Translations under genes and position numbers: made by a program
Shown here: positions 24,929 to 42,681 of the stretch, piece by piece
How positions within the stretch are numbered: the first letter of the stretch is position 1
Layout of the letters: the number at the start of each line of letters is the position of its first letter
The notes under the pieces: generated by a model
Seen by the model: the letters and a program-made list of their open reading frames with translations, nothing else
Databases searched by the model: none
Told to the model about the DNA's origin: nothing
Source: an uncultured Fibrobacter sp.
Lineage (GTDB): Bacteria; Fibrobacterota; Fibrobacteria; Fibrobacterales; Fibrobacteraceae
Assembly (NCBI GenBank): GCA_947165045.1
Contig: CAMUYW010000008.1
Location: forward strand, 1-64,000
DNA length: 64,000 bases
Reading direction: 5' to 3'

Positions 24929-24991
24929 ATGCGCGGTATTGATGACAGATACTATTTTGATTGCAAAAACATTTTTTATGAGGTCTATGGC

Positions 24992-25984
24992 ATGATCGTC
25001 TCTTGGATGACAACGAATAAGTGTAACTTGACGTGCAAACACTGCTACCAGGATGCTGGCGAAAACAAGTCGGCAGAACTCACGACTTCAGAAGCGCTCA
25101 AGCTCATTGACGAGATTGCCAAGGCCGGTTTCAAGATCATGATTTTTAGCGGTGGCGAGCCGATGACCCGCCCGGACATCGTGGAACTTGTGGCCCATGC
25201 CCGCGAACGCGGACTCCGCCCGGTGTTTGGCACGAACGGAACGCTCATCACGCACGACCTTGCGTTCAAGCTTAAGGACGCGGGGGCTATGGCTATGGGC
25301 ATCAGTGTCGATAGCATTGACCCAAAACGTCATAACGATTTCCGAGGCCTCCCGAACGCTTTTGAACTGACGTTGCAGGGTATCGAGAACTGCAAGGCTG
25401 CTGGCCTCCCATTCCAGATCCACACGACCATCATGGACTGGAACCAGAACGAAATTTTCGACATCATGGACTGGGTCAAGGAAATCGGTGCCGTGAACCA
25501 CCAGATTTTCTTCCTCATCCCCGTCGGTCGCGGCAAGGAAATTGAAGACCATGCGCTCCGCGTTGCCGAATACGAAGGACTCCTCCGCAAAATTATGGAA
25601 AAGAGCCGCACGCTCGGCATCCCGGTAAAGCCGACTTGCGCTCCGCAGTTCCTCCGCATCGCAGACCAGCTCGACATCAAGACGCGTTATAGCCGCGGCT
25701 GCCTCGCCGGTCTCGACTACTGCATCGTGAGCCCGATCGGTAAGGTGCGTCCGTGCGCCTATATGATGGAAGAAGCGGGCGATGTTCACGATACGCCGTT
25801 TGACGAAATTTGGGCAAATGCTGAAATCTTCAAGCAGTTGCGTACAAAAGCTTACAAGGGCGCTTGTGGCAAGTGTAAGTTCAACGACCGCTGCGGCGGC
25901 TGCCGTGCTCGTGCCGCTTACTACCACGATGGCGACTTCATGCAGGAAGACTCGTATTGCGCATATGGCCGTGGACTTAAGTGA
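24992..25984 (+). CDS. ahbD: Radical SAM/SPASM heme synthase candidate, AhbD-like (Fe-coproporphyrin III decarboxylase)
   Basis: TTNKCNLTCKHCYQ, FSGGEPMTRPDIV, SPIGKVRPCAYMMEEAG, CGKCKFNDRCGGCRARAAYYHDGDFMQEDSYC SPASM cysteines; alternative in-frame start at 24929. Confidence 0.75.
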   Translation: MIVSWMTTNKCNLTCKHCYQDAGENKSAELTTSEALKLIDEIAKAGFKIMIFSGGEPMTRPDIVELVAHARERGLRPVFGTNGTLITHDLAFKLKDAGAMAMGISVDSIDPKRHNDFRGLPNAFELTLQGIENCKAAGLPFQIHTTIMDWNQNEIFDIMDWVKEIGAVNHQIFFLIPVGRGKEIEDHALRVAEYEGLLRKIMEKSRTLGIPVKPTCAPQFLRIADQLDIKTRYSRGCLAGLDYCIVSPIGKVRPCAYMMEEAGDVHDTPFDEIWANAEIFKQLRTKAYKGACGKCKFNDRCGGCRARAAYYHDGDFMQEDSYCAYGRGLK

Positions 25985-26433
25985 TGACTCATTGGCCGAT
26001 ATTCTTCATTATTTTGATTTTCGTCGCTATACCTTTTGTGCTTAAGTCAGAGAAGTATATCGAAAGAGAAAATCTCAAGTGGAAAATTTGGTTTATTTCT
26101 TTACCGGTATTTGCTGCTTTATTCTTTATCGAATTTTTTTGTCTAGACGGTTTTAGCAATTTTGATTCGAGTAATATATTAGGGTGGCTTGGATTAACTT
26201 TAGGTGTTTGGCTTACCTTGATATCTGTTGTTTTTTTAGGTCGTTCCTTTCGTTCAAAATGGGATGTTTCGCCGAGTGAAGCCGATGATAATGCTGATGA
26301 CATTTTCGATATGGCTATGAAAATTGGCAAGGAAAAACGCGAAGGGAAGGATACTTCGGAATTGCAAGTCGAATACGAACAAAAAGTGAAAAATTTTGAA
26401 GAAACTGGCGATCCGAATAAGACTAATTGGTAG
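25981..26433 (+). CDS. Small membrane protein of unknown function
   Basis: Three hydrophobic segments, charged C-terminus; overlaps the preceding stop codon (ATGA-type). Confidence 0.55.
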   Translation: MMTHWPIFFIILIFVAIPFVLKSEKYIERENLKWKIWFISLPVFAALFFIEFFCLDGFSNFDSSNILGWLGLTLGVWLTLISVVFLGRSFRSKWDVSPSEADDNADDIFDMAMKIGKEKREGKDTSELQVEYEQKVKNFEETGDPNKTNW

Positions 26434-26443
26434 AGAAACGGAA

Positions 26444-26758
26444 ATGATTGATTTTATAACGCAATATCATGATGTAATTCTTTGGTTTTGCTTTGGTGTG
26501 GCGGGATTGGTAATTCCTGGTTTAATGGGGTGTGATGAATATCCGGGCGATGAATCGAAACTGTGGAAAGTTCGTCTAGTTGGTTTGCTGATAATATTTG
26601 GTTGTATTTGTTATTTTTTTAGAAATTTCTCTTGGGATGCTAATGGTGTTTTTGCAAGAATTTTGGCGTCAGTAGCGTTTTGGCTTGTCTGTTTTTTTCC
26701 TCGAAATTACTTTTGGCTTTTGCTTACTCGTGATAAAGGCGACAATAAAAAGAAATAG
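26444..26758 (+). CDS. Small membrane protein of unknown function
   Basis: MIDFITQYHDVILWFCFGVAGLVIPGLMGC... hydrophobic segments; lies between the above ORF and tadA. Confidence 0.55.
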   Translation: MIDFITQYHDVILWFCFGVAGLVIPGLMGCDEYPGDESKLWKVRLVGLLIIFGCICYFFRNFSWDANGVFARILASVAFWLVCFFPRNYFWLLLTRDKGDNKKK

Positions 26759-26766
26759 GTTGTAAT

Positions 26767-27261
26767 ATGGATAACATAAACAATGACGACGTGAAATTTA
26801 TGCGCATGGCGCTTCGCCAGGCCCAGATTGCTTTTGACATGAAGGAAATTCCCATCGGTTGCGTTATCGTGAAAGACGGAGTGGTGATAGGGAAGGGCTA
26901 CAACCAGGTCGAACAGCTCAAGGACGCGACCGCCCATGCCGAAATCATTGCGATTGGAACTGCCGCAAGTACGCTCGACAACTGGCGTCTGGACGATTGT
27001 ACGCTCTACGTTACGCTCGAACCGTGCCCGATGTGTGCGGGAGCTATCCTCAACAGCCGCGTTTCCCGTGTAGTTTACGGTTCCCCCGATACGCGTTTTG
27101 GCGGTTGCGGCACGACGGTCGATGTCATCAACGGCAATGCCCTCAAGCGCGATGTGCAAGTCACAGGCGGAATCCTCGCCGACGAATGCCTCGGCCTCCT
27201 TAAAGGCTTCTTCCAGCAAATGCGCCTTGAAAAAGGCGATTCCGGCAATAAAGGCGTTTAA
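26767..27261 (+). CDS. tadA: tRNA-specific adenosine deaminase
   Basis: MRMALRQAQIAFDMKEIPIGCVIVKDG, ATAHAEIIAI, LYVTLEPCPMCAGAILNSRVSRVVYG. Confidence 0.93.
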   Translation: MDNINNDDVKFMRMALRQAQIAFDMKEIPIGCVIVKDGVVIGKGYNQVEQLKDATAHAEIIAIGTAASTLDNWRLDDCTLYVTLEPCPMCAGAILNSRVSRVVYGSPDTRFGGCGTTVDVINGNALKRDVQVTGGILADECLGLLKGFFQQMRLEKGDSGNKGV

Positions 27262-27423: not shown

Positions 27424-28254
27424 ATGAATTTTATAAAGTTTAGTGCTCTCTCTCTTGCTTTAGTGTGCCTCTGTTCCTGCGAACGGAACGAAATTCATCT
27501 TGCTTTTAACACGCAGACGGTTGGTCCTCAGTCGTTCATTCTCGAATCGACTCTGAATGCAAGCCTGCCGGGCGATTCTGTGAACGTCCCCGAATCTATG
27601 CGCACTCACGTGAGTGTCCGCAGTACCATGAGCCTTCTCATGTCGTACGATGATGGCTCGGGCCGCTTCGAAATGAAAATTGATTCCGTCGATTACACGA
27701 GCGACAAGCGCTCCGTCGACGAATTCCGCAATATTGAAAAGTACTTGTCCATTCAAAATTTCCAGTTCAAGCTGGACCACGATGGCATCATTACCGACCC
27801 GACCATCGAAAACGCTTTAGACATGCCTTCCGAAGACGAACTCAACTTGATTCCGCTTTTCCTCAAGGCTCAACCGCTACTCCCCGAAAAGCCGGTGAAA
27901 CTCGGTGAATCCTGGGAACGCCAGATGCCGATTTTCGGTAAGGGCAACAGTTCTACGACGGTCTACAAAACATTCACGCTTCAAGATGTGTACTTGCAAG
28001 ACGGCGTTCGCATGGCGAAAATCCACATGGGCATGAAGTATTTGGAACTCCCGGACACAACTTCGAATTTGCAATTGAAGAGCAGTGATTACGTGATTGG
28101 CGATGGCATGGTTCTCTTTGACGTGACGCACGGAACCATCTCTTCTGCCGAAATGAATATCGTAGCTGTTCTTGACGTGCGCGACCTGGTTGCAGGCGAC
28201 ACGCTCCCGAGCTTGAATGTCAATCAGAAAATCACCTTGAGGAACCAGCAATGA
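27424..28254 (+). CDS. Putative lipoprotein, first gene of motor-like operon
   Basis: Lipobox VCLCSCERNE; overlaps the next gene by ATGA. Confidence 0.65.
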   Translation: MNFIKFSALSLALVCLCSCERNEIHLAFNTQTVGPQSFILESTLNASLPGDSVNVPESMRTHVSVRSTMSLLMSYDDGSGRFEMKIDSVDYTSDKRSVDEFRNIEKYLSIQNFQFKLDHDGIITDPTIENALDMPSEDELNLIPLFLKAQPLLPEKPVKLGESWERQMPIFGKGNSSTTVYKTFTLQDVYLQDGVRMAKIHMGMKYLELPDTTSNLQLKSSDYVIGDGMVLFDVTHGTISSAEMNIVAVLDVRDLVAGDTLPSLNVNQKITLRNQQ

Positions 28255-28967
28255 TCCGTAGTTTTATGCGTTCCTCGATTTTGACCGTTCTTGCGGCTAG
28301 CGCTTTGTTCGCTTCGGGTATGCCATTCCCAGTGGCCGAAAATGGTAAAGTTCTTTTGAAAGAAAAAGACAGTCCTTACGTGCTCGAACAGGGCGTGGTT
28401 GTCGGCGAAAATGATTCGCTCGTCATTGAACCGGGTGTGACCGTTCTCATGGGCGAGTTTGCAAAACTCATGATCCAGGGTACGATAAAAATTGTAGGCA
28501 CGAACGAAAAGCCGGTTGTCTTTAGCGGTGCAGATTCTGTGGCGAACTGGAATGGCTTCCACATCATGTCTAGTGCGCGCCCCTTTGAAATCAAGAACCT
28601 GACGGTCGAGAATGCTTTTCGCAATACGATTTTCCGTTCTAGCGGCACGCTCGAAAACGTGAATTTCTTCAATAACTATTATGGCCTATGGGTTGATGAA
28701 AGCCCCGATGTCACTCTTGCGCGTTGCACGTTTGCTCACAACCGCTATGCGATTTCTGTGAGGGCAGGCCGCGTTGTCTCGAATGGAACAAGTGTTTCCG
28801 AAAACGTTTATGGGCTTTATCTCGAATCCGGTGGCAAGCTCGATGGCGATACGGACTTGATTCGTAATAACCAGGAATCCGATATCCGCAGTGAAGCCAT
28901 GGACCTTAAGCTTTCCAAAAAGCGAGTTCGCCGCAACGTGTGGCATAATATTGAGTCTCGTTTTTAA
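28251..28967 (+). CDS. Exported parallel beta-helix-like protein
   Basis: Signal peptide; repeated short strand pattern (NLTVENAFRNTIFRSSGTLENVNFFNNYYGLWVDESPDVTLARCTFAHNRYAISVRAG). Confidence 0.6.
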   Translation: MIRSFMRSSILTVLAASALFASGMPFPVAENGKVLLKEKDSPYVLEQGVVVGENDSLVIEPGVTVLMGEFAKLMIQGTIKIVGTNEKPVVFSGADSVANWNGFHIMSSARPFEIKNLTVENAFRNTIFRSSGTLENVNFFNNYYGLWVDESPDVTLARCTFAHNRYAISVRAGRVVSNGTSVSENVYGLYLESGGKLDGDTDLIRNNQESDIRSEAMDLKLSKKRVRRNVWHNIESRF

Positions 28968-28976
28968 GGGGTAGTC

Positions 28977-29894
28977 GTGGAAGAAGCTTTTCGTAGAGCC
29001 ATACGCAAAATGACGGGGGCAAGCGTACGCTTGGCTGTTCGTCCGAATCGCTCGGCTATTGTCGCTACGCTTTCTCAATCCATGATGGTTACGTGGTCTA
29101 TCGCGCTTTTTGAACATCTCGATGCCATGCTCAACAATCCGAATGCGAACGTCGGTAGCTCCGAATTGATTTCGTTCAGCGAGTCGGCATGGAAACTTTG
29201 CGAATCGGGATTCCCGCAGATTTTCAAGGATTGTGAAAAACTTTACAGCGAGTTCCGCGCCAAGTGGATCCAGCGCTTTTCGACCGACGAAGTGTTGCGC
29301 CTCTTGCTTGAAGGCGGCGACTTCTTGGTGCATGACGAAGAAAAAGGCTGGGCCTTAACGGTCAAGAATAATAAGCAGGACATCAACAACTTTTACTCGG
29401 CTACGATTCATTTGTTGGTGAGCGATGCCGAACCGTTGTTCGTGCGCATGCATGGCCGCGTGATGCAGTTGCAAGAAAAACTCTGCAAATATTGGCTTTC
29501 TGAAAGTGCGGTGGACCCGGTGTCCAAACTTTTGCCGTGCCTCGAAGCCTCCTTGCGTGAAAAAGAAAATGCAATGGTCGTTTCGCTCCGTACGTCTTTG
29601 AATTCGCTTGCCAAAAAGCGTTTTGCGGCGGCGTTCTCCTCGAAAGGTCCGGTGCGCTATTATTCGTCCGCGATGTCTTGTGCAAGGAATGTCGGGCGTT
29701 TCTGGAATCCGCATTACGCATACGAAAATTGCTTCCTTGCTTTTACGGATGACTTTTGCGATTACGCGCAGGGCCTTACAACGCAAATTATTGAATGGTA
29801 CCAGAGCAAATGGTCCCTCTTCCTTCGCGGGTTCTCTCGCGGTCAGTTAAACTTGTTTGAAACAGTCGCTCCTTATCAAGCGCAGAATGTGTAG
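28977..29894 (+). CDS. Uncharacterised protein in motor-like operon
   Basis: Operonic GTG-start ORF, 305 aa, no recognised domain. Confidence 0.6.
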   Translation: MEEAFRRAIRKMTGASVRLAVRPNRSAIVATLSQSMMVTWSIALFEHLDAMLNNPNANVGSSELISFSESAWKLCESGFPQIFKDCEKLYSEFRAKWIQRFSTDEVLRLLLEGGDFLVHDEEKGWALTVKNNKQDINNFYSATIHLLVSDAEPLFVRMHGRVMQLQEKLCKYWLSESAVDPVSKLLPCLEASLREKENAMVVSLRTSLNSLAKKRFAAAFSSKGPVRYYSSAMSCARNVGRFWNPHYAYENCFLAFTDDFCDYAQGLTTQIIEWYQSKWSLFLRGFSRGQLNLFETVAPYQAQNV

Positions 29895-29901
29895 GTAAAA
29901 A

Positions 29902-31767
29902 ATGAAAAATGCATTCAATACGATTATTCTTTTGACGGTGGTGGGTTTTGCAACCCTTATCGTAGGAGCCCTTTACTTTGGTGCTCCTGCATTCGGTTGG
30001 ATAATCATGATCGCCATCATGGCCGTTTACTTGGTGGAACAGCTTTCTGCGATCCGCAAGATGAAGCAGATTATCGCCGAAAACGAAATTATCGATGCTT
30101 GCGAAAAGGACCACGTTTTCCCTGAACTTGACAGCGGCGTAGTTGCCAAACGCGTTGAACTTGCCAAGCGACTCTTGCAAAAAAACATTCACCTCGATTC
30201 TCCGATTGCTTTCGAAGTGCTCTCGTCGGGTTCTTCAATTCCGCTCAACCGCAGCGTAGGTTCGACGGTTATTCTCCTTGGTTTGATGGGTACGTTCTTC
30301 GGCCTTATGCAGTCCGTAGCAACCGCCGGTGGTGCAATTGATAACTCGACTACGCAAGGCACGCTTGATACGATTCAGGTACTCTTCCAGAACATGAAGG
30401 GCATCTTCGGTACAAGCCTTTGCGGTTTGTTTGCCGCTTTGATTTTGGGTGCAACCCGCACGGTGCTTAGCTCCAAGCGTGATGAATTTATGGCTCACCT
30501 TGATGCCTTTACACTCGATATGCAAGACTCTGTGAGCGAAAAGGGTGTGATTGAAGAAGACAAGAGTGAACTCGAACGCCTCTTTGATTCTGTCGAAAAG
30601 AATTTGTCCGTGATTGCATCTTCTGTCAAGGAAGGTTTGGCTGGCGTTGTTTCGATGGTTGGCGAGGAACTCTCTGCCATGACTTCGAAACTCAATCAGG
30701 ATGTCGTAGAATCGGTCCAGAAGGTTTCTACTGAAATGACATCTTCGATTAAGACCGTGAACGATTCTCTCGCTGGCGCTGTTGCCAACATGAATGAATC
30801 TTCTCAAAAGTTTGGCGAACTTGTGGGCGCTTCTGTTACGAATGCGTTTAACCCGATTAATGAAAATATCGTTGCTCTTTCTGCTTCTGTCGAATCGATT
30901 CCTTCTAAGCTGGACGAAAAGCTCAATGGCATTTCTAGCGCCTTGAACGTAGGCCTCGAAGGCATCTCTTCTGGCGTTAAATCTTCGCTCGAAAGCGTGG
31001 CTTCCGATGTTAAGGCCGGTCTCGATGGTGTTGCTTCTGATGTGAAGGCCGGACTCCAAGATGTGGCGAAAGGCACCATGGATGTGGCATACCTTACTAA
31101 AGATGCAATGGACGAAGCTTCTAAGAGCATTGGTGATTCTGTTGCCGAACAGGTCAAGCAGTCCAGCGAACAGTGGGCAAACTTCATGCAGCGTCTCGAA
31201 TCCGAAACGACTGCCAATGTGGATTCCCAGCGCGAAGGCCTCGAAACGCTCAAGAACGTTGCCTTGCAAGTTGCCGAAAAGGCTCAGGCCGGTTCTGCTG
31301 AACTCTCGCAGAACGTTTCCGAAAAACTCGGCACGCTTTCTTCCGACATTCTCGGTGCATTCCAAAAGCTCTCCGAAACTTCTTCCGTGCTTCTCGAAGC
31401 GCAAAAGGCACTCACCGAAAGCATTGACAACCGCGTGGTCAAAGAAAAGGAAGCTACGGACGCTCTTGGCGGAAACATTGTGGAAACCGCAGAACTTATG
31501 CGCGTGAACCAGTCCGAACTCAGCGCCAACCTTGAAATGCTGCGTAGCGGCCTCGAAACGATTCTCGAAAAGCTCTCGGGCGATACGGCTGAACACGAAG
31601 AAGAAGACAACTTTGTCGAACATCTCAACCAGTCTCTCGAAGCATTCCACGAACGCGCAAGCGAAGTGCTCATGGAAAATGCGGTCAAGACTCAGGAAAT
31701 CTTGCTCGAAGTGCTTGAACAGACCCAGCGTTCTGCAATCCCCGCTCAACCTAAAGCTGAAGGTTAA
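29902..31767 (+). CDS. MotA/TolQ/ExbB-family (ZorA-like) membrane protein with long coiled-coil tail
   Basis: TM pairs; STVILLGLMGTFFGLMQSVATAGG and GIFGTSLCGLFAALILGATRTVL; ~400-aa helical tail with internal repeats (SVASDVKAGLDGVASDVKAGLQDVA). Confidence 0.8.
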   Translation: MKNAFNTIILLTVVGFATLIVGALYFGAPAFGWIIMIAIMAVYLVEQLSAIRKMKQIIAENEIIDACEKDHVFPELDSGVVAKRVELAKRLLQKNIHLDSPIAFEVLSSGSSIPLNRSVGSTVILLGLMGTFFGLMQSVATAGGAIDNSTTQGTLDTIQVLFQNMKGIFGTSLCGLFAALILGATRTVLSSKRDEFMAHLDAFTLDMQDSVSEKGVIEEDKSELERLFDSVEKNLSVIASSVKEGLAGVVSMVGEELSAMTSKLNQDVVESVQKVSTEMTSSIKTVNDSLAGAVANMNESSQKFGELVGASVTNAFNPINENIVALSASVESIPSKLDEKLNGISSALNVGLEGISSGVKSSLESVASDVKAGLDGVASDVKAGLQDVAKGTMDVAYLTKDAMDEASKSIGDSVAEQVKQSSEQWANFMQRLESETTANVDSQREGLETLKNVALQVAEKAQAGSAELSQNVSEKLGTLSSDILGAFQKLSETSSVLLEAQKALTESIDNRVVKEKEATDALGGNIVETAELMRVNQSELSANLEMLRSGLETILEKLSGDTAEHEEEDNFVEHLNQSLEAFHERASEVLMENAVKTQEILLEVLEQTQRSAIPAQPKAEG

Positions 31768-31769
31768 TC

Positions 31770-32459
31770 ATGCGTCGCAATAGAGACGAAAATAGCAATC
31801 CATGGATGGCGTACACGGACTTGGGCGTAGCCCTTGTTTCGCTCTTTATCCTTGCGTTTGTGGCCATGGCGACCCTCAAGGAACAGAAAGCGGAAGACTT
31901 GACGCGTACCGAAGAAGAAGTGTTGAGCTGCCAAGAACAGATGCGAAAAATCGCCGCCGAACGCAATGCGCTTTTGTCCAAGAGCTTGCAGACTTCCATC
32001 GAAGCTGGCCTTATCGCACTCGAAGATGGCAAGATCCAGATCCAGGCCAGTTTCCTTTTCCCGATTAACGGCGCAAATCTCACTAAAGAAGGCGAGGGCG
32101 TGATTCGCGGTATCAGTAAGGGCCTCTTGGAAGCGCTTGATTCGACCGACGTAATCATGGTGAGCGGATTTACGGACGACATTCCGTTTAGCGGATCTAC
32201 TTCGTACACGAACTGGAATTTGTCTACGGAACGTGCCGTGAACGTGGTCAAGATGCTTGTGAAAATGGGTTTCCCGCCCGACAGACTTTTTGCCGCAGGC
32301 TTTGGCGAACACCGCCCGAAGTATCCGAACGACAGCGAAGAACATCGTCGTTTGAACCGTCGCGTGGAAATCGGTGTCACGCCGCTCCAGTCGAACAACA
32401 GCAATAATGAACCTGTTGCAGAAACTGTTAAAAAATCTGCAAAAGAGGTGAAGCGTTAA
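31770..32459 (+). CDS. MotB/OmpA-like (ZorB-like) protein
   Basis: N-terminal TM with Asp (YTDLGVALVSLFILAF) and OmpA-C domain (SGFTDDIPF...NWNLSTERAVNVVKML...GFGEHRPKYPNDSEEHRRLNRRVEI). Confidence 0.85.
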   Translation: MRRNRDENSNPWMAYTDLGVALVSLFILAFVAMATLKEQKAEDLTRTEEEVLSCQEQMRKIAAERNALLSKSLQTSIEAGLIALEDGKIQIQASFLFPINGANLTKEGEGVIRGISKGLLEALDSTDVIMVSGFTDDIPFSGSTSYTNWNLSTERAVNVVKMLVKMGFPPDRLFAAGFGEHRPKYPNDSEEHRRLNRRVEIGVTPLQSNNSNNEPVAETVKKSAKEVKR

Positions 32460-33124
32460 TGGAAGAGCTCACCGAAAAGCTATCTGCAATTAAGGAAAGT
32501 ATCGACGCCATTCGCAAGACTGGCAAGCTTTCGCATTGGCGGATGGTTTATGCGGATACGCTTTGCACGCGTGCGCAAGAATATGTTGCGGTGGACCGTT
32601 ACCCGGAAGCAAAGCTAGTCGCTCAAAAGCTGGAACGCTGGATCAAGGCGCATGAACCTGCTCTTGTAACGAACACTGGTGACACGCGCCCGCCGATGAT
32701 TTTCTGGAATGCAGATTTGTTGCGCAATATTGTGGGCCGTATCCGTTCGACATTGGCAGCAAAGCAAATGTTGGTGCCTTCGACGGAACGTGATTCTATC
32801 AATCGTCGCTTGAATGTTGTCGAAGACTGGATTCAGAAAGGCGAATTTCTCGTCGCTCACGATGAACTCTTGGCACTCCGCAGTGCGTTGATTGCGCGCC
32901 TCCGCCGTAGTTACCGTGCTCGCGTTGTCGCTTCGTCTGCCTATAGTGGCGGTTATGTGCAACCGGCTGGTTCTATGGTCGGGCTTTACAACTCGCTCCA
33001 TACGCTCGAAGAAACATTCCACATCGTGGGCGAACACGACCCGATTTGGATTGAAGACTTCCTCGAAATCTACAACGATTTGTTCCGAATCGTTGACCGC
33101 CTTGTCCCGCAAGACAAAAAGTAA
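32459..33124 (+). CDS. Uncharacterised protein, last gene of motor-like operon
   Basis: Start overlaps the preceding stop; 221 aa, helical, no recognised domain. Confidence 0.65.
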   Translation: MEELTEKLSAIKESIDAIRKTGKLSHWRMVYADTLCTRAQEYVAVDRYPEAKLVAQKLERWIKAHEPALVTNTGDTRPPMIFWNADLLRNIVGRIRSTLAAKQMLVPSTERDSINRRLNVVEDWIQKGEFLVAHDELLALRSALIARLRRSYRARVVASSAYSGGYVQPAGSMVGLYNSLHTLEETFHIVGEHDPIWIEDFLEIYNDLFRIVDRLVPQDKK

Positions 33125-34852: not shown

Positions 34853-35272
34853 TTAATCCCAGGGGCTTTTATCCCAAGAACTCGTGTATTTGGGTTTCTG
34901 TTTTTCTCGCGGCATGTCAACGTTTCTTGTCTTTCGAACATTATCAATCATACATGTTCTCAAGTTTGTGAGCCTGTTGCCATTTGCATAACAGAGTGTT
35001 TCCATTTCTTGGTCACGAGTGTATTTGGTGCGTGCGATTTGGTATCCATCGATATAAAATTCAAAGAATCCGTGCTTCATGCCTCGGCTGCATCGTCCGT
35101 ATGCAATAATTTCCTGGTTGTATTCATCTACAAAATGCCATGTTGCACGCTCCATGTGTAAACCAATACAGTTGTAAGGCTGGTTTATGTCCGCTAATGT
35201 TTGGAATTTTTGATAAGAAGAACAAGCGCAAAGCAGGAACGCTATTGTACAGAATGCAAAAAATTTAGTCAA
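34853..35272 (-). CDS. Putative lipoprotein ending in ...SSWDKSPWD
   Basis: Lipobox FLLCACSSYQ; TTG start at 35272 with GAGG upstream (35284 alternative). Confidence 0.6.
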   Translation of the reverse strand: MTKFFAFCTIAFLLCACSSYQKFQTLADINQPYNCIGLHMERATWHFVDEYNQEIIAYGRCSRGMKHGFFEFYIDGYQIARTKYTRDQEMETLCYANGNRLTNLRTCMIDNVRKTRNVDMPREKQKPKYTSSWDKSPWD

Positions 35273-35286
35273 CTCATACCTCAAAT

Positions 35287-35320
35287 AAAAAGGCCGAGAA
35301 ATTCAAAAGAACTTCTCGGC
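35287..35320 (-). terminator. Intrinsic terminator (minus strand), similar to that at 34802
   Basis: Minus strand: GCCGAGAA...TTCTCGGC followed by CTTTTT. Confidence 0.65.
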
Positions 35321-35341
35321 AAAAGATAAAAAATAATTGTA

Positions 35342-35911
35342 CTAGTCCCAAACGCTCTTTTTGGCTGGAGCTGCTTCATCATAAGATTCCGCATCTTCGC
35401 CACGAACTGCTTTGGGTTCTTCATATTCGCTAGGCTGCATAACCGATTCTTGTTGTTTTACAGTTTTCTTAACTTTGTAAGATGAACTGTAAGGACGGTC
35501 CCAAACGCTGCCACCTTGCTCGTTATTGTTGCTATAGCTAGGCCTTGTCACGTACGTATCAATTGGGATTTCGATATCGTCAGGGTAGGCTTTGTACAAG
35601 AACAATGACATTCCGTAGGTCAACGGTATCCACAAAATGGATGCGGCCGAAATGCTACGATGTACTTCAACAGCACCGACTCTTTGACCATCAAGGTAGG
35701 CTTCTAACATGCCGCCAGCTCTAGTGCCTCGTGTCTGGAACGAACAGTCTTCATCGCTACCCATTCTGCAGACCGGTTGACCATTGAGGTAAATGTCGTA
35801 TGGCCTGGAGGCATATTGACTGGCGGTAACGCTTGTACGCCCGGCAAAGCAACCGGTCAGGCTAAGCGATACGGTTGCAAGCAACAGGGTTGATATTACC
35901 TTGGTATTCAT
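35342..35911 (-). CDS. Putative lipoprotein ending in ...KKSVWD
   Basis: Lipobox LSLTGCFAGRT; two SVWD motifs. Confidence 0.65.
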   Translation of the reverse strand: MNTKVISTLLLATVSLSLTGCFAGRTSVTASQYASRPYDIYLNGQPVCRMGSDEDCSFQTRGTRAGGMLEAYLDGQRVGAVEVHRSISAASILWIPLTYGMSLFLYKAYPDDIEIPIDTYVTRPSYSNNNEQGGSVWDRPYSSSYKVKKTVKQQESVMQPSEYEEPKAVRGEDAESYDEAAPAKKSVWD

Positions 35912-35913
35912 TA

Positions 35914-36945
35914 TTAGAATCCTATGGCAAGACCTGCACCAAACTTAAAGCCGTTCATGTGGTGCTTTTTCGGAGAAGGATCCTGTTTTACCTTATTGCC
36001 TTCGGTGTCCTGAACATCCTTGTAGAAGGCTGTTTCGAAGAAGTCAACAAAGTAGGTTGCCTGAACGAGGAACATTACGCGGCTTGCGCGGTTGAACAAA
36101 ACACCGCCACCAACTTGCATGGAAAGACCGCTGGATTCATTTTCTTCTTCGTCAGAATATCCATAGCTGGAATAATGGGTATAGTAGGTGTAACGCCAGC
36201 TATAGGAGAGACCGCCACCCACGAATGGAGAAATATTCGATGTCGTGAACGGGTAGAAACCAGAAAGCGATACATCAATAAGCATTGGATTGCCATTGGA
36301 ATTTCCCGGATTGCTTACGGACCAGTCTAGGCCGAAAAGGAAGTCCTTGGCATCATACAAAACGAAGAGTCCAAGACCTGCATCCATTTTTGCTTCAGAC
36401 GGATTGAGCGGAAGTTCGCCCAAAATCTTGCCACCCCAGTAAGAGGTTACGCCTTTTTTCTTAGGATTCTTGGTTTCTTGTTCGGTGACAGTGTAGATGT
36501 CATCGTCATTGGTTGCTTTTTTCTTAGTGCCAATGTTTTTTGCAACACGCTGGATGATTGGATCGAAATCGTCGGGATTCTTTGCCTTGAGACGGTCGCT
36601 CCAAACCGGAGCTTCGTTATTGACGTCGTAGAGTTTAAAGGCTGTGATGACGTTTTCGCCAAGGCGCGTAAATTCAGCCATGATGAACTTGGTGCAGTTC
36701 TTTTGCATTGCAATCTTGTTTGCTGATTCGCGGTCACCAACTTTTATGGAATCATCTTCGGCATAGTTAACCAAAACATAGCGTCCGTTATCGTCAATAT
36801 AGGCGTTCATGAGTTTTTCGGCTGCGATGCCAAAATCATCATTTAAGCCGACCATACTGAATGGAGCCAAGTAAACACGTTCGGCTGCATAAATAGAAGC
36901 AGCAAGAGCAAGTGTTGTGGCGAAAAATTTTTTGATGCAGTTCAT
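35914..36945 (-). CDS. Secreted/outer-membrane hypothetical protein
   Basis: Signal peptide, soluble N-domain, barrel-like C-terminus ending FKFGAGLAIGF. Confidence 0.6.
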   Translation of the reverse strand: MNCIKKFFATTLALAASIYAAERVYLAPFSMVGLNDDFGIAAEKLMNAYIDDNGRYVLVNYAEDDSIKVGDRESANKIAMQKNCTKFIMAEFTRLGENVITAFKLYDVNNEAPVWSDRLKAKNPDDFDPIIQRVAKNIGTKKKATNDDDIYTVTEQETKNPKKKGVTSYWGGKILGELPLNPSEAKMDAGLGLFVLYDAKDFLFGLDWSVSNPGNSNGNPMLIDVSLSGFYPFTTSNISPFVGGGLSYSWRYTYYTHYSSYGYSDEEENESSGLSMQVGGGVLFNRASRVMFLVQATYFVDFFETAFYKDVQDTEGNKVKQDPSPKKHHMNGFKFGAGLAIGF

Positions 36946-37078
36946 ATAAGAATCTCCTTTAAGTAAGAATTTAGCAATTAAAGGGTAAAAAGAAAAGTGT
37001 TTTTTTTCCCAAATGGATGATTTGGCGATGAATGGATAGAATTTTAGGCTAAAATGCGCGATAGGGTGATGAAAATGC

Positions 37079-37849
37079 TTAATTTGGCAGTTCTTTTTCG
37101 AGAATTTCTTTCATCTTGTGGGTCAATTTAGTTGCACTCTTGGTCATCGGCATATCGATGTATTCATTTATAGAAATAGGAGCAAGGACCTTCAGGTTGT
37201 ACAAATATTTTTCTGTTGGATGAAATTGCAATAATTTATCGTGTTTGCGGAGGCCAATTTTGTCGTTTCCGCCAAAGAAAATAGGAATGACATCGTTTTT
37301 GGAATAAAGCGCAAATCGAGCGGCCCCTTTTTTGAAATCCCACGGTTCGCCGGGTTTTGTACGCGTGCCTTCTGGGAATATGATGAGGTTGTTGCCTTCG
37401 TCCATCGATTTTTTTGCTTGTTTCAATTGATCTTCGAACGGAATGTTATTGGGAATATAGAGATTCTTTATAATAAGCGAAATAAATTTATTTTGGATGA
37501 GTTCGCCTTTTACAATGCAATCGGCGTTTGGAACGAGCGAAAATAGAATCACCACGTCGAAAAGCGAAGGATGATTTGCAATGACAACTTTGGATCGGAT
37601 TTTTTTGAGCGATTCTTTGTTCTCTACGGTGAGACGGACTGCTCCGAAAATGCTTGTGATTTTGACGAAAAATTTAAAGTATTGGTGGTTGAATTTTCGC
37701 ACCATTTTCTTGAATCTTGTTTCTGAAAATCCTGACAGAATGTGCATAATCGGAAATAGCAAAATGGCCAAAATTAAGCTACAAATGCCGAAAAACGCAA
37801 AACAAAAGAGTTTTACGAAAACGCGACGGATGTAGCGGATTTTTGCCAT
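37079..37849 (-). CDS. Lysophospholipid acyltransferase-family (LPLAT/PlsC-like) protein
   Basis: VVIANHPSLFDVVIL (NHxxxxD), IIFPEGTRTKPGEPWDFKKGAARFAL. Confidence 0.88.
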   Translation of the reverse strand: MAKIRYIRRVFVKLFCFAFFGICSLILAILLFPIMHILSGFSETRFKKMVRKFNHQYFKFFVKITSIFGAVRLTVENKESLKKIRSKVVIANHPSLFDVVILFSLVPNADCIVKGELIQNKFISLIIKNLYIPNNIPFEDQLKQAKKSMDEGNNLIIFPEGTRTKPGEPWDFKKGAARFALYSKNDVIPIFFGGNDKIGLRKHDKLLQFHPTEKYLYNLKVLAPISINEYIDMPMTKSATKLTHKMKEILEKELPN

Positions 37850-37854
37850 GTGCG

Positions 37855-38532
37855 TTACGCCCGTTGCATGTTGATGGCGCAGAGAAAAGCTATTGCTTGT
37901 TCTGCGGCCGTGTCAAAGTTGTTGTGCAACATTTTAAGGTACGAAAGTTGGCTTAAAATGTCGATGTTTTTCAGTGCCAGGTCTGCTTTCGATTCGTCGG
38001 TCGTGAGGCGGAGCGCTAAGGCGCAGACGGCGTTCGGGCAAGGGACTCCTGCAACAGGCGCATAAACTTCTGGAATAAGTTCGTCTGCAAAAATGAATGT
38101 GCGCGTGTCTGCATTTTCGACTTCGAGTGCGGCAAGGCAATCCGTGAGGCCTGTGGTGAACGCATCTTTCCCGGAGAAAACGGCGGAGTACCCGGCGGTG
38201 TTGGCTTCGAGAATCGATGCGTTTGCAATGGAGGCGTTAAATACCGAAAGGCTGAAATGCGCGGGTGAGACCATTCCCGTATCAATAAGTGTCTGCGAAA
38301 TTTTAAGCTGCTGGTTGATTTCGCCAAATTGCGATGCAAATGTCACTTTGCATGGTTCAAGTTTGTTGCCGCGAGAATCGCGCGAAACTTGATCGCTCAC
38401 GAGCACGACCATGCGCGAAATGGAGCTTAAACGGCGGCGCGTAAGCATCGGGACGAACGACACATCCGGTTTGGGTTGCGCTTCGGTCGGGATAAAGCTT
38501 GCCATTCTTTCGATAAAAACTTTACGGGCCAT
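37855..38532 (-). CDS. Beta-ketoacyl synthase-like protein lacking the active-site Cys (aryl-polyene cluster type)
   Basis: FVPMLTRRRLSSISRMVVLVSDQV...SLSVFNASIANASILEANTAGYSAVFSG...PNAVCALALRL; ketoacyl-synt_2-like. Confidence 0.7.
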   Translation of the reverse strand: MARKVFIERMASFIPTEAQPKPDVSFVPMLTRRRLSSISRMVVLVSDQVSRDSRGNKLEPCKVTFASQFGEINQQLKISQTLIDTGMVSPAHFSLSVFNASIANASILEANTAGYSAVFSGKDAFTTGLTDCLAALEVENADTRTFIFADELIPEVYAPVAGVPCPNAVCALALRLTTDESKADLALKNIDILSQLSYLKMLHNNFDTAAEQAIAFLCAINMQRA

Positions 38533-38533
38533 G

Positions 38534-39637
38534 TTATTTTTTGCGGAAACGGAGGAGGGAATAGGCGTTCGGGCCCACGTTGTGGTGCGCTTCTTTCAAT
38601 TCGAATCCGGCAATTTCGATGGCGCGTTTGAGCTCGGCGTAGCGGTACATTTTGCTGTTGCCGTTCGCGATGCAAGTGAAGTAAAGCGATGTGGCTTGCA
38701 AAGAGTAGGCCGCGGCTTCAAAACGTTGTTTGTCCCAAAGCGGTTCGAGCACGTAAACGTCTGTTTCTGGCGTGACTGCGCTGTGGATTTTCGTCAAGAT
38801 TTTTGTGACTTGTTCGAGCGAAAAGCAATCCAAGAATTGGCTCATCCAAACTGCATCAGCGCCTTTCGGAAATTCGGTTGTATCGTCGAGAACGTTGCAG
38901 GCGACAGTGTCGATGCGGTCGGAAAATCCTGCGGCTGCGGCATTCTTTTCGGCAACCGCGGTTTGCCCCGGCAAGTCGATGATGGAAACTTTAACGTCTG
39001 CGTTGTATTTGCAGCAGGCGATTGCCCATTTTGCGGTGTTTCCGCCGATGTCAAAAAGGCGGGGCGATTTGCGTTCAGCGAGTGTTTCGAAGACAATCGG
39101 GAGTGCTTCGGGGAATGCTAAGTCGGAGTAAAAATGATCAAAGCCGAACCAGCTCTTCTTTTGCTGTTCGGTCAGTTGCGAAAGGCCTTCGTAAACTGTT
39201 TTCCAGGGGCCCAAGTGGGGGAGGCCGGCGGGTTTTCCGCTGCGGATGGACTGCTCAAGATTCTCGGCTCCGCGATAGCAGATGTCTTCGGAAAAGTCCA
39301 TGTTCACTTGAGTCATTTCGTCTTTCATGAGAAAAAATCCGATTTTCCCGAGCGTGAGGCGCAAGTCATCTTCGCCAGAATCTTTGTGGATTTTGATGGC
39401 TCCCATGCCAAGTCCCATCTCCACAAGTACGCCAATACCGTAAAGCGAAATGCCCAGTTTTTGGGAAAGTTCCGAAATCGTGATTCCCTTTTTGCGGGCG
39501 TTGCTGATTTCGTCTAGGATGCCCATGTTTCTGAGGGCGCGTGCGGCTTGGAAACTGAGTGGCGCAAATGCGATTTTTTGGGCTTCGAACTTGGCGTTTA
39601 CGGCATCGATGGAATCGTTTTTATAAAAATCGAACAT
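38534..39637 (-). CDS. SAM-dependent O-methyltransferase-like protein
   Basis: N-terminal winged-helix-like region, RLFDIGGNTAKWAIACCKYNADVKVSIIDLPGQTAVAEKNAAAAG SAM-binding segment. Confidence 0.8.
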   Translation of the reverse strand: MFDFYKNDSIDAVNAKFEAQKIAFAPLSFQAARALRNMGILDEISNARKKGITISELSQKLGISLYGIGVLVEMGLGMGAIKIHKDSGEDDLRLTLGKIGFFLMKDEMTQVNMDFSEDICYRGAENLEQSIRSGKPAGLPHLGPWKTVYEGLSQLTEQQKKSWFGFDHFYSDLAFPEALPIVFETLAERKSPRLFDIGGNTAKWAIACCKYNADVKVSIIDLPGQTAVAEKNAAAAGFSDRIDTVACNVLDDTTEFPKGADAVWMSQFLDCFSLEQVTKILTKIHSAVTPETDVYVLEPLWDKQRFEAAAYSLQATSLYFTCIANGNSKMYRYAELKRAIEIAGFELKEAHHNVGPNAYSLLRFRKK

Positions 39638-39748
39638 GTTATCTCTGTAGCGAATTCATGATAGAAAATTACAACATTAATATAAAATTATTTTTCTATA
39701 TTGCCTATCCAAGAAAGAACAAACCTTGATTGAGGTCGCTAGAAATAT

Positions 39749-40024
39749 ATGTCCGATTTGAATACCCGTATTAAGGAAGTCATTATTGAATCCCTTGAAC
39801 TGGAAGATATTACCCCAGCCGATATAGTCGATTCTGCTCCGATTTTTGGGAAGAATGCTGCTGGTGAAGGGCTTGGTCTTGATTCGATTGACGCTTTGGA
39901 ATTGGGCATTGCCATTAAGGAAAATTTTGGTGTGACGTTCTCGACCGTGAAGGAAGAAACCAAGAAGCATTTTGCATCGGTGAACGCACTTGCAGACTAC
40001 ATTTCTGCAAATTCTAAGGGCTAA
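39749..40024 (+). CDS. Acyl carrier protein 1
   Basis: LGLDSIDALELGIAIKENFGV phosphopantetheine attachment motif. Confidence 0.88.
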   Translation: MSDLNTRIKEVIIESLELEDITPADIVDSAPIFGKNAAGEGLGLDSIDALELGIAIKENFGVTFSTVKEETKKHFASVNALADYISANSKG

Positions 40025-40027
40025 TCC

Positions 40028-40285
40028 ATGGACAAAAATGTCATTTTCGAAAAGATAAAGGCGGCCCTTATCGAAGATTTCGACTTGGAAGAAGAACGCA
40101 TTCTCCCGGAAGCCAAGCTCTACGAAGATTTGGAACTGGACAGCATCGACGCTGTGGATTTGATTGTCAAGTTGAAGTCGTTTTTGCCGAGAAACATTGA
40201 CCCGGAGGCGTTCAAAAAAATGCGCACTCTACAGAACGTGGTCGATGGCGTATACAATCTTGTTCGAAATTCGGAATCCAAGTAA
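40028..40285 (+). CDS. Acyl carrier protein 2
   Basis: LELDSIDAVDLIVKLKSF phosphopantetheine attachment motif. Confidence 0.88.
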   Translation: MDKNVIFEKIKAALIEDFDLEEERILPEAKLYEDLELDSIDAVDLIVKLKSFLPRNIDPEAFKKMRTLQNVVDGVYNLVRNSESK

Positions 40286-42681
40286 TGAAACAGATGGCGG
40301 GAAAGATTTTCTTTACCGCGATTTCTGTTCTGTATCCGGTAATTGTCTATTGCGGGTATAGATACTGGGGGCTTTCTCCAAGGCGCTTGAGCTTGATGCT
40401 TTTAGCGCTTGCCTTTTATCATTTTTTGAATTTTACGCGGAGTAAGTCGCAAGTGGAGCGCGGGCGGACCGGCATTTTTGTTGTGTTGGTTCTCGTGTGT
40501 GCGCTTGTGGCGTTTTTTGCGGATAACATTTTATTCGTCAAGTTTTACCCGGTGCTTGTGAACTTGAGCTTGCTCTCGTTCTTTGGCTTTACGCTGTGGA
40601 AGCCGCCCAGTTTTGCATTCCGCATGGCTAGCCTTCATGACAAGTCGCTAGAGAAATCACCTTCGTTTAAAGCGGTGGAGCGCTACTGCCGGAATGTGAC
40701 GGTGGGCTGGTGCATTTTTTTCATTGTGAACGGTTCTATCGCCACTTTTACAGTTTTTGTAGGGTCTGACAAAATTTGGTCGCTGTACAATGGTTTGATT
40801 TCTTACATTTTAATCGGTTTAATTTTTATGGTGGAATATTTGGTTCGAAAAATGGTGCAGAGTAAAATGCAATCGTATGTTCCGGTTTGCGATTTGGAAC
40901 TGGATTCCCGCCCGAATGGGGCTCTTGTAAGTTTTGATGCTGGCGCGGATGCTGCGAATGTTGGCGGAGCGGTCGCAGGGAATAGGACTTGGGGCGATTT
41001 TGTAAGCGATGTTTCCAAGGTGCGCTATTATTTGGAAGCGCGTGAAAATACGCCATGGATTTTGCATTGCGAAGATTCATATTTCTTTACGGTGGCGTTG
41101 ATCGCGATGCTCCAGAGCGGGCGTAAAGCGCTTGTAACTGCGAACCGCCAAGAAGCTTTTATCAAAGAAATCAAGAAGCCGGAATACGGATTTTTGACGG
41201 ATGAACCGTTTGCGGGTGATGATTCTGCAACGATGATTCAGGACGTGCTTGCAGGTACAGCGAGCGGGGAATGCGTGGAAGAAAAATGCGCGCCGCTTAA
41301 ATTCGGCAAGTTTGACAAGTCTAAAGCCGAAATGGTGATGTACACGTCTGGCACGACAGGCGAACCGAAAGCTGTGTACAAACTTTTCTTGCAATTTGAG
41401 AATGAACTTTTTGAATTGGTGAAAGTTTTTGGAAACGATTGGGTGAATCGCAAGGTTTATAGCACGGTCAACCATCATCATATTTACGGTTTATTGTTTA
41501 CGGCACTGCTCCCGATTGCAACAGGCCTTCCGTTCCGCAGGCATCGCATTGATTTCCCGACTGAACTTGCAAATATTGCAGGCGAAACCGCTGTGATTGC
41601 ATCGAGCCCTGCGTTCTTGAAGCGTTTGTCTGCTGAAACGGATAAGGCCATTGGCTTTAAGTGCCCGCCGATTATTTATTCGTCCGGTGGCCCGCTCCCC
41701 GAAGATGTTGCACGCAAAGCTAGTGAACTTACGGGCTATTGGCCGATGGAAATTTATGGCAGCACAGAAACGGGCGGCATCGCGTATCGTCAATCCAAAA
41801 ATGGTCCGGTGTGGAAACCGTTTGAAGTTTGCAAAATGTGCCTTGCGGAGAATGGATGCTTGAATATCAAGTCGAGCTACATTCTTGAAGCGGATGGATT
41901 TACCACGGGTGATTTGGCGGACCTTTACGATGACGGTCGCTTTTTGCTCAAGGGGCGTTCGGATTCGATTGTGAAAATTGAAGAAAAGCGCATTTCGCTC
42001 CCTGAAGTGGAAAATCGCTTGAAGCAGACCGGCTTAGTGCAAGATGTTCGCGTTGTACCGATGGTGGGCAAGCGCCAGTATTTGGCGGCTGCTATTGTGC
42101 TGAATGATGCTGGTCGTGAAAAATTTGCAGGCGCTCCGAAGCTTGCTGTCAATAATTTCTTCCACGATTATTTGCTGAAGTTTATTGAAAATACGGTCTC
42201 GCCCAAAAAATGGCGCTATCTCGAAGAATTGCCGCAGAATACTGAAGGCAAAATTCGCATGCGCGATATCCAAGCGCTTTTTGGACTTGCTGAAAGCCCG
42301 AATTTTAAGATTCTCAAATTCCGCAGAGAGCCAGGCGTGTTAACGGCGAAAATTTTGTTCCCTGCGACAAGCGATTACTTTGACGGGCATTTCCCAGAAT
42401 TCAAATTGCTGCCAGCGGTTGTGCAAGTGGATATGGTTTTGCGCTTGGCACGGAATTTCTTGGATGTACCCAAGGATCTTTCGAAGATGAACCGTACGCG
42501 TTTCGCAAACCCCATTCTGCCTGATGTTCCGGTAATGGTGAAAATCAGTTACGACGCGGATGCAGGCAAGGTGACTTTTGCATTTACGAGCGTTGATGGA
42601 GAGACCTCGTTCTCGAACGGCTCGATGATTATGCAGACGAGTGTTGCAACCGTTGCGGGTGCAGGAGAAAATCGTGAGTAA
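40285..42681 (+). CDS. Tri-domain fusion: COG4648-like membrane domain + AMP-dependent acyl-ACP ligase + ApeI-like hotdog dehydratase
   Basis: Multiple TM helices (1-200); MVMYTSGTTGEPKAVYK, EIYGSTETGGIAYRQS, FLLKGRSDSIVKIEEKRISLPEVE; C-terminal FPATSDYFDGHFPEFKLLPAVVQVDMVLRLA. Confidence 0.85.
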   Translation: MKQMAGKIFFTAISVLYPVIVYCGYRYWGLSPRRLSLMLLALAFYHFLNFTRSKSQVERGRTGIFVVLVLVCALVAFFADNILFVKFYPVLVNLSLLSFFGFTLWKPPSFAFRMASLHDKSLEKSPSFKAVERYCRNVTVGWCIFFIVNGSIATFTVFVGSDKIWSLYNGLISYILIGLIFMVEYLVRKMVQSKMQSYVPVCDLELDSRPNGALVSFDAGADAANVGGAVAGNRTWGDFVSDVSKVRYYLEARENTPWILHCEDSYFFTVALIAMLQSGRKALVTANRQEAFIKEIKKPEYGFLTDEPFAGDDSATMIQDVLAGTASGECVEEKCAPLKFGKFDKSKAEMVMYTSGTTGEPKAVYKLFLQFENELFELVKVFGNDWVNRKVYSTVNHHHIYGLLFTALLPIATGLPFRRHRIDFPTELANIAGETAVIASSPAFLKRLSAETDKAIGFKCPPIIYSSGGPLPEDVARKASELTGYWPMEIYGSTETGGIAYRQSKNGPVWKPFEVCKMCLAENGCLNIKSSYILEADGFTTGDLADLYDDGRFLLKGRSDSIVKIEEKRISLPEVENRLKQTGLVQDVRVVPMVGKRQYLAAAIVLNDAGREKFAGAPKLAVNNFFHDYLLKFIENTVSPKKWRYLEELPQNTEGKIRMRDIQALFGLAESPNFKILKFRREPGVLTAKILFPATSDYFDGHFPEFKLLPAVVQVDMVLRLARNFLDVPKDLSKMNRTRFANPILPDVPVMVKISYDADAGKVTFAFTSVDGETSFSNGSMIMQTSVATVAGAGENRE

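What the first reader, a model, noticed from the sequence alone, without database searches (positions are those of the whole stretch)
27424..33124. Six-gene envelope operon built around a ZorA/ZorB-like ion-driven motor pair
Six ORFs are packed with overlaps or <12-bp gaps: lipoprotein, exported beta-helix-like protein, unknown 305 aa, MotA/ExbB-like protein with ~400-aa coiled-coil tail, MotB-like protein with TM Asp and OmpA-type peptidoglycan-binding domain, and unknown 221 aa. The long tail and OmpA partner resemble Zorya ZorA/ZorB, but there is no ZorC, ZorD or ZorE-like helicase/nuclease nearby. The partner set suggests a different, possibly undescribed motor acting at the envelope (secretion, adhesion, surface movement or defence).
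Basis: partly seen in the sequence, partly recalled or inferred. Interest (0 to 1): 0.72.

Follow-up and report, generated by a model that had tools for sequence, protein, structure and literature searches.

The report
Zorya III-like motor operon in Fibrobacter
This is a real six-gene operon for a membrane ion-driven motor, a distant and inherited-as-standard relative of the 'Zorya type III' anti-phage system, and it matters because some related bacteria have lost the motor but kept its three other parts, hinting that the system is more than a phage defence.

Summary
The six ORFs are real and packed as described. Zorya type III uses a DUF3348 and a DUF2894 protein, in the order DUF3348-ZorA-ZorB-DUF2894. 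That is the layout here: 305 aa-ZorA-ZorB-221 aa. ZorB matches the PADLOC ZorB3 model (E 6e-42). The 221-aa protein is a distant DUF2894 relative (well above a shuffled null). The 305-aa protein is probably a distant DUF3348 relative (weaker evidence). Two envelope genes, a lipoprotein and a beta-helix protein, are added upstream.

The operon's 305-aa gene is single copy in 106 of 109 sampled genomes of its class and absent from the rest of its phylum. The operon tracks the neighbouring tadA gene, so it behaves like core genome, not a mobile defence island.

In 23 loci of the same class the channel part of ZorA and all of ZorB are missing, while the membrane-anchored rod with its conserved tip, the 305-aa and the 221-aa proteins are kept.

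Best reading: a divergent Zorya-III-type 5:2 rotary motor, core-encoded, whose tail tip carries the two soluble proteins. Defence versus envelope maintenance is unresolved.

The parts
27424..28254 (+). Gene 1: outer-membrane-type lipoprotein, 276 aa, weak DUF6263-like
   Evidence: Lipobox Cys conserved in relatives; DUF6263 7.2e-6, just under the cut-off; homologues kept next to the operon also in six motorless loci of one genus, g14
28251..28967 (+). Gene 2: exported right-handed beta-helix protein, 238 aa
   Evidence: Beta_helix 1.4e-8 and NosD 2.7e-6; no detectable homologue in one motor-form genus (L047) and in the motorless loci
28977..29894 (+). Gene 3: 305-aa predicted cytoplasmic protein, probable distant DUF3348 (Zorya III) counterpart
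   Evidence: Same position as DUF3348 in Zorya III; hhalign E 0.002, score 30.4 against shuffled-column maximum 26.7 in 100; no Pfam or PADLOC hit; single copy throughout the class
29902..31767 (+). Gene 4: ZorA-like, 621 aa; MotA/ExbB-type channel, about 400-aa coiled-coil tail, conserved C-terminal tip (about residues 520-612)
   Evidence: PADLOC ZorA3 1.3e-12; profile comparison with Zorya III ZorA 2.9e-13; LGLMGTFFGLM and GIFGTSLCG motifs conserved; tip conserved with motorless relatives, 6.5e-26
31770..32459 (+). Gene 5: ZorB-like, 229 aa; one TM helix with Asp17, OmpA-type peptidoglycan-binding domain
   Evidence: PADLOC ZorB3 5.9e-42; profile comparison with Zorya III ZorB 8.8e-38; Asp17 and OmpA-domain residues invariant across Fibrobacteraceae and Burkholderiales/Rhodocyclales
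32459..33124 (+). Gene 6: 221-aa predicted cytoplasmic protein, distant DUF2894 (Zorya III) counterpart
   Evidence: Shared G-P/L-x-N motif and following helix; hhalign 4e-4 to 9e-5 and score 33.2 against null maximum 20.9; below Pfam/PADLOC detection

Best explanation
The block is a divergent Zorya type III-like motor operon with two added envelope genes, inherited vertically as a core operon of its class. Shown by sequence: gene order, channel motifs, the TM Asp, the OmpA domain, the tail and its conserved tip. Inferred from solved ZorAB and MotAB complexes: five ZorA and two ZorB form an ion channel; when the OmpA domains grip peptidoglycan, ion flow turns the ZorA ring and its cytoplasmic tail. 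Inferred from conservation: the 305-aa and 221-aa proteins dock at the tail tip and are the output or control parts, and the lipoprotein and beta-helix protein act on the outer side as a sensor or anchor. I judge a standing envelope-maintenance or surveillance role more likely than a dedicated, mobile phage-defence role, but this last step is not shown. The confidence given is for the identity and motor mechanism; for the envelope role over defence it is about 0.55.
For: ZorB3 5.9e-42 and ZorA3 1.3e-12. In five annotated Burkholderiales/Rhodocyclales plasmid loci the order is DUF3348-DUF802-OmpA-DUF2894, and proteobacterial loci with all four genes in range keep the four genes together on one strand. 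Profile comparisons: ZorB 8.8e-38, ZorA 2.9e-13, 221 aa to DUF2894 8.6e-5; matched pairs were reached by 0 of 100 shuffles with scores 30.4 and 33.2, against 19.8 and 22.9 for mismatched pairs. Class-wide single copy: 106 of 109 genomes, the three misses being 88%, 71% and 65% complete; no match listed in the rest of the phylum. Operon genes track tadA, Mantel r 0.61-0.85, above all permutations. No convincing defence genes among ten neighbours scanned. In Burkholderiaceae the DUF2894 gene is one per genome in 98 of 147, against 2 of 147 for a strong type I ZorA hit.
Against: The 305-aa to DUF3348 link is weak (E 0.002, about 44 aligned columns) and one mismatched pair also beat its null, though with a lower score. 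Neither soluble protein reaches any Pfam or PADLOC model, while a true Zorya III locus does. The DUF802 repeat is not detected in gene 4. The tail tip is not significantly similar to proteobacterial ZorA3 tips. No experiment touches function here, and a Zorya III clone reduced phage plating in E. coli (PMC8565338), which favours defence.
Confidence: 0.72

Rival explanations
1. It is a bona fide anti-phage Zorya III system that became fixed in the class: the motor senses envelope disturbance by an incoming phage and the two soluble proteins act as effector or regulator.
For: Same four-gene layout as Zorya III; the Stenotrophomonas Zorya III locus lowered phage plating when expressed in E. coli (PMC8565338); ZorA/B mechanism in types I and II (PMC11890865).
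Against: Class-wide single-copy vertical presence, matching divergence with tadA, no convincing defence neighbours, and absence of the motor in relatives that keep the rest.
Confidence: 0.3
2. The pair energises secretion, adhesion or surface movement (for example as the motor of a type 9-like secretion system) through the lipoprotein and beta-helix protein.
For: Envelope-exposed genes 1 and 2 in the operon; type IX secretion has been proposed for F. succinogenes S85 (PMC6851124).
Against: ZorA/ZorB here match Zorya models; gene 2 is undetectable in one motor-form genus and motor-free relatives exist. A GldLM-type motor was not searched for.
Confidence: 0.1
3. Standard flagellar MotAB or Tol-Pal pair with unrelated neighbours.
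For: Weak MotA_ExbB, TolQ and MotB matches.
Against: TolQ only 0.026 against ZorA3 1.3e-12; the flagellar MotB models score well below the ZorB3 model; six-gene synteny conserved across genera.
Confidence: 0.02

Closest known systems
Zorya type III (DUF3348-ZorA-ZorB-DUF2894; PMC8565338)
   Same: Gene order; ZorB3-type motor subunit; long-tailed ZorA with the same channel motifs; two soluble partners, the second detectably and the first probably homologous.
   Different: Soluble partners below model thresholds, no DUF802 repeat detected, two extra upstream envelope genes, class-wide vertical presence, motor-free derivatives. Naming caution: the paper calls DUF3348 ZorF and DUF2894 ZorG; the PADLOC models label them the other way round.
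Zorya types I and II (ZorABCD, ZorABE)
   Same: ZorA/ZorB motor with long cytoplasmic tail and peptidoglycan-binding ZorB.
   Different: No ZorC, ZorD or ZorE counterpart in the operon; weaker model scores.
Flagellar MotAB/PomAB, TolQR, ExbBD, GldLM
   Same: Same ion-channel superfamily (established knowledge; ZorB matches PomB and MotB structures).
   Different: Much longer ZorA tail, different partners and operon.

Membership tests
Zorya type III | ZorB of the type III kind | tested here: met
   PDLC00651 5.9e-42 over residues 6-212; control Azoarcus ZorB 1.4e-114
Zorya type III | ZorA with MotA-like channel and long tail | tested here: met
   PDLC00648 1.3e-12; profile 2.9e-13
Zorya type III | DUF802 repeat in ZorA (seen in the annotated loci; not in the published definition) | tested here: not met
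   No DUF802 match at E<=1 though the control has it (2.3e-32)
Zorya type III | DUF3348 protein | tested here: inconclusive
   No model hit; profile E 0.002, 0 of 100 shuffles as high
Zorya type III | DUF2894 protein | tested here: inconclusive
   Below model thresholds, but profile E 8.6e-5 and 4e-4 and 0 of 100 shuffles as high; one relative hits the PADLOC DUF2894 model weakly (0.019)
Zorya type III | Gene order DUF3348-A-B-DUF2894 | tested here: met
Zorya type III | Protects against phage | not testable with these tools
   Needs infection assays
Zorya type I or II | ZorC/ZorD or ZorE | tested here: not met
   None among the six genes or ten nearby proteins

The most novel reading that the evidence does not exclude
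The tail tip and its two soluble partners form an ancient core-genome machine in which the ion motor is an optional part: several lineages run it without any motor. 'Zorya III' in proteobacteria would then be a housekeeping envelope system whose phage protection is one consequence.
Probability: 0.4. Interest if true: 0.72.

Novelty: new variant of a known kind. Interest (0 to 1): 0.52.

Why it matters
It carries a Zorya III-type layout into a second phylum, where models for its soluble proteins miss it. It offers natural motor-free versions that point to the tail tip plus two soluble proteins as the conserved working core, and it makes the question of whether Zorya III is defence or housekeeping directly testable.

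Tried and rejected
Tol-Pal or flagellar identity: rejected on model scores. Fold searches with proteobacterial DUF3348 and DUF2894 models: no PDB match at E<=0.001, so no functional hint; both models are all-helical. Direct homology of the tail tip to proteobacterial ZorA3: not significant (scores 15-21 against a heptad-block null maximum of 19.5). Promoter and terminator scan: at or below chance. PDB search with ZorA: nothing useful. Literature search for Zorya III as core genome: nothing on point. S85 proteome papers list a 23.9-kDa OmpA protein, FSU_0151, of suitable size; identity with gene 5 not established. The window protein itself was not folded: the two structure jobs went to the proteobacterial relatives.

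Full report
Observation. The six ORFs lie at 27424-33124 on the + strand with overlaps or gaps of at most 9 bp. Gene 4 carries ZorA-type matches, gene 5 OmpA and ZorB-type matches, gene 2 beta-helix matches, gene 1 a weak DUF6263 match; genes 3 and 6 match nothing curated at E<=0.01.

Identity. The best models are ZorA3 (1.3e-12) and ZorB3 (5.9e-42). Zorya type III was defined by a DUF3348 and a DUF2894 protein (PMC8565338). Five annotated loci from plasmid records show DUF3348-DUF802-OmpA-DUF2894, the same order as genes 3-6. Of 28 further proteobacterial loci scanned, one gave no match, and those with all four genes in range keep the four together on one strand (long ORF extensions blur some start points); a few stop short of the first gene.

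Homology of the soluble proteins. With 31-34 proteobacterial sequences per family, gene 6 against DUF2894 scores 33.2 (null maximum 20.9) and gene 3 against DUF3348 scores 30.4 (null maximum 26.7); mismatched pairs score 19.8 and 22.9. I treat gene 6 as homologous and gene 3 as probably so; a control Zorya III locus hits all models strongly, so these are far relatives.

Motor features. The channel motifs and the ZorB Asp are conserved in Fibrobacteraceae and present in Burkholderiales, and Asp17 is invariant in a joint ZorB alignment. Solved relatives of gene 5 are MotB and PomB. The 5:2 stoichiometry and rotation are inferred from published ZorAB work (PMC11890865).

Distribution. The gene 3 family is found once per genome, some split by contig ends, in 106 of 109 sampled genomes of the class and in none of the listed rest of the phylum (the single-sequence search gave 107 of 151 with one marginal extra). 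The 109 is my count: matches plus the three same-genus misses, since the list runs by kinship and the next misses are of other classes. Pairwise distances of all six genes follow those of tadA (r 0.61-0.85, above all 500 permutations). In Burkholderiaceae, DUF2894 occurs in 98 of 147 genomes, one copy over cut-off each, all in genomes of at least 3.3 Mb, while 17 of the 20 listed genomes without it are 2.6 Mb or smaller; type I ZorA gives only two strong, sub-cut-off hits in the same set. Across Pseudomonadota as a whole it is in 24 of 398, so it is lineage-restricted.

Motor-free forms. Of 38 loci examined, 15 show the motor form (one, L052, cut by a contig end) and 23 do not: the ZorA homologue there has one or two TM helices (none predicted in one), no hit to the channel profile, a rod, and the conserved tip; no ZorB profile hit lies in the locus; the gene 6 homologue is present in 22. 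A ZorB search of ten such genomes found only weaker OmpA or MotB-like hits (at most 90 bits, none at all in one 98%-complete genome) against 196-386 bits in three motor genomes. Because genera g7 and g11 lie inside the motor-bearing family, loss there is the simplest reading; the state in f3-f5 could be loss or ancestral absence. No species tree was built. The tip matches between the two forms at 6.5e-26.

Interpretation. A divergent Zorya III-type motor operon, core-encoded, with extra envelope genes. Defence, envelope maintenance or both remain open; I lean to a standing envelope role because of vertical core presence and motor-free derivatives, but fixed defence systems are possible and a Zorya III clone does protect E. 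coli.

Noticed in passing
window 34853-42681: Ketoacyl synthase, acyltransferase, O-methyltransferase and AMP-binding genes resemble an aryl-polyene or flexirubin-type pigment cluster.
   Followed up: no
window 24929-27261: A radical SAM/SPASM protein, two small TM-like ORFs and tadA lie directly upstream; tadA stays next to the operon in most Fibrobacteraceae loci. The radical SAM protein also hits viperin models, probably as a generic family match.
   Followed up: partly
L056 10019-10561: In genus g7 the motor-free ZorA homologue has a rod of P-K-I-E-V/I type repeats in place of the coiled coil, with the tip kept.
   Followed up: partly
L055 6434-7387, L060 8021-9037: An ORF resembling a pseudouridine synthase lies upstream of the motor-free operon in two lineages (seen by eye).
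   Followed up: no
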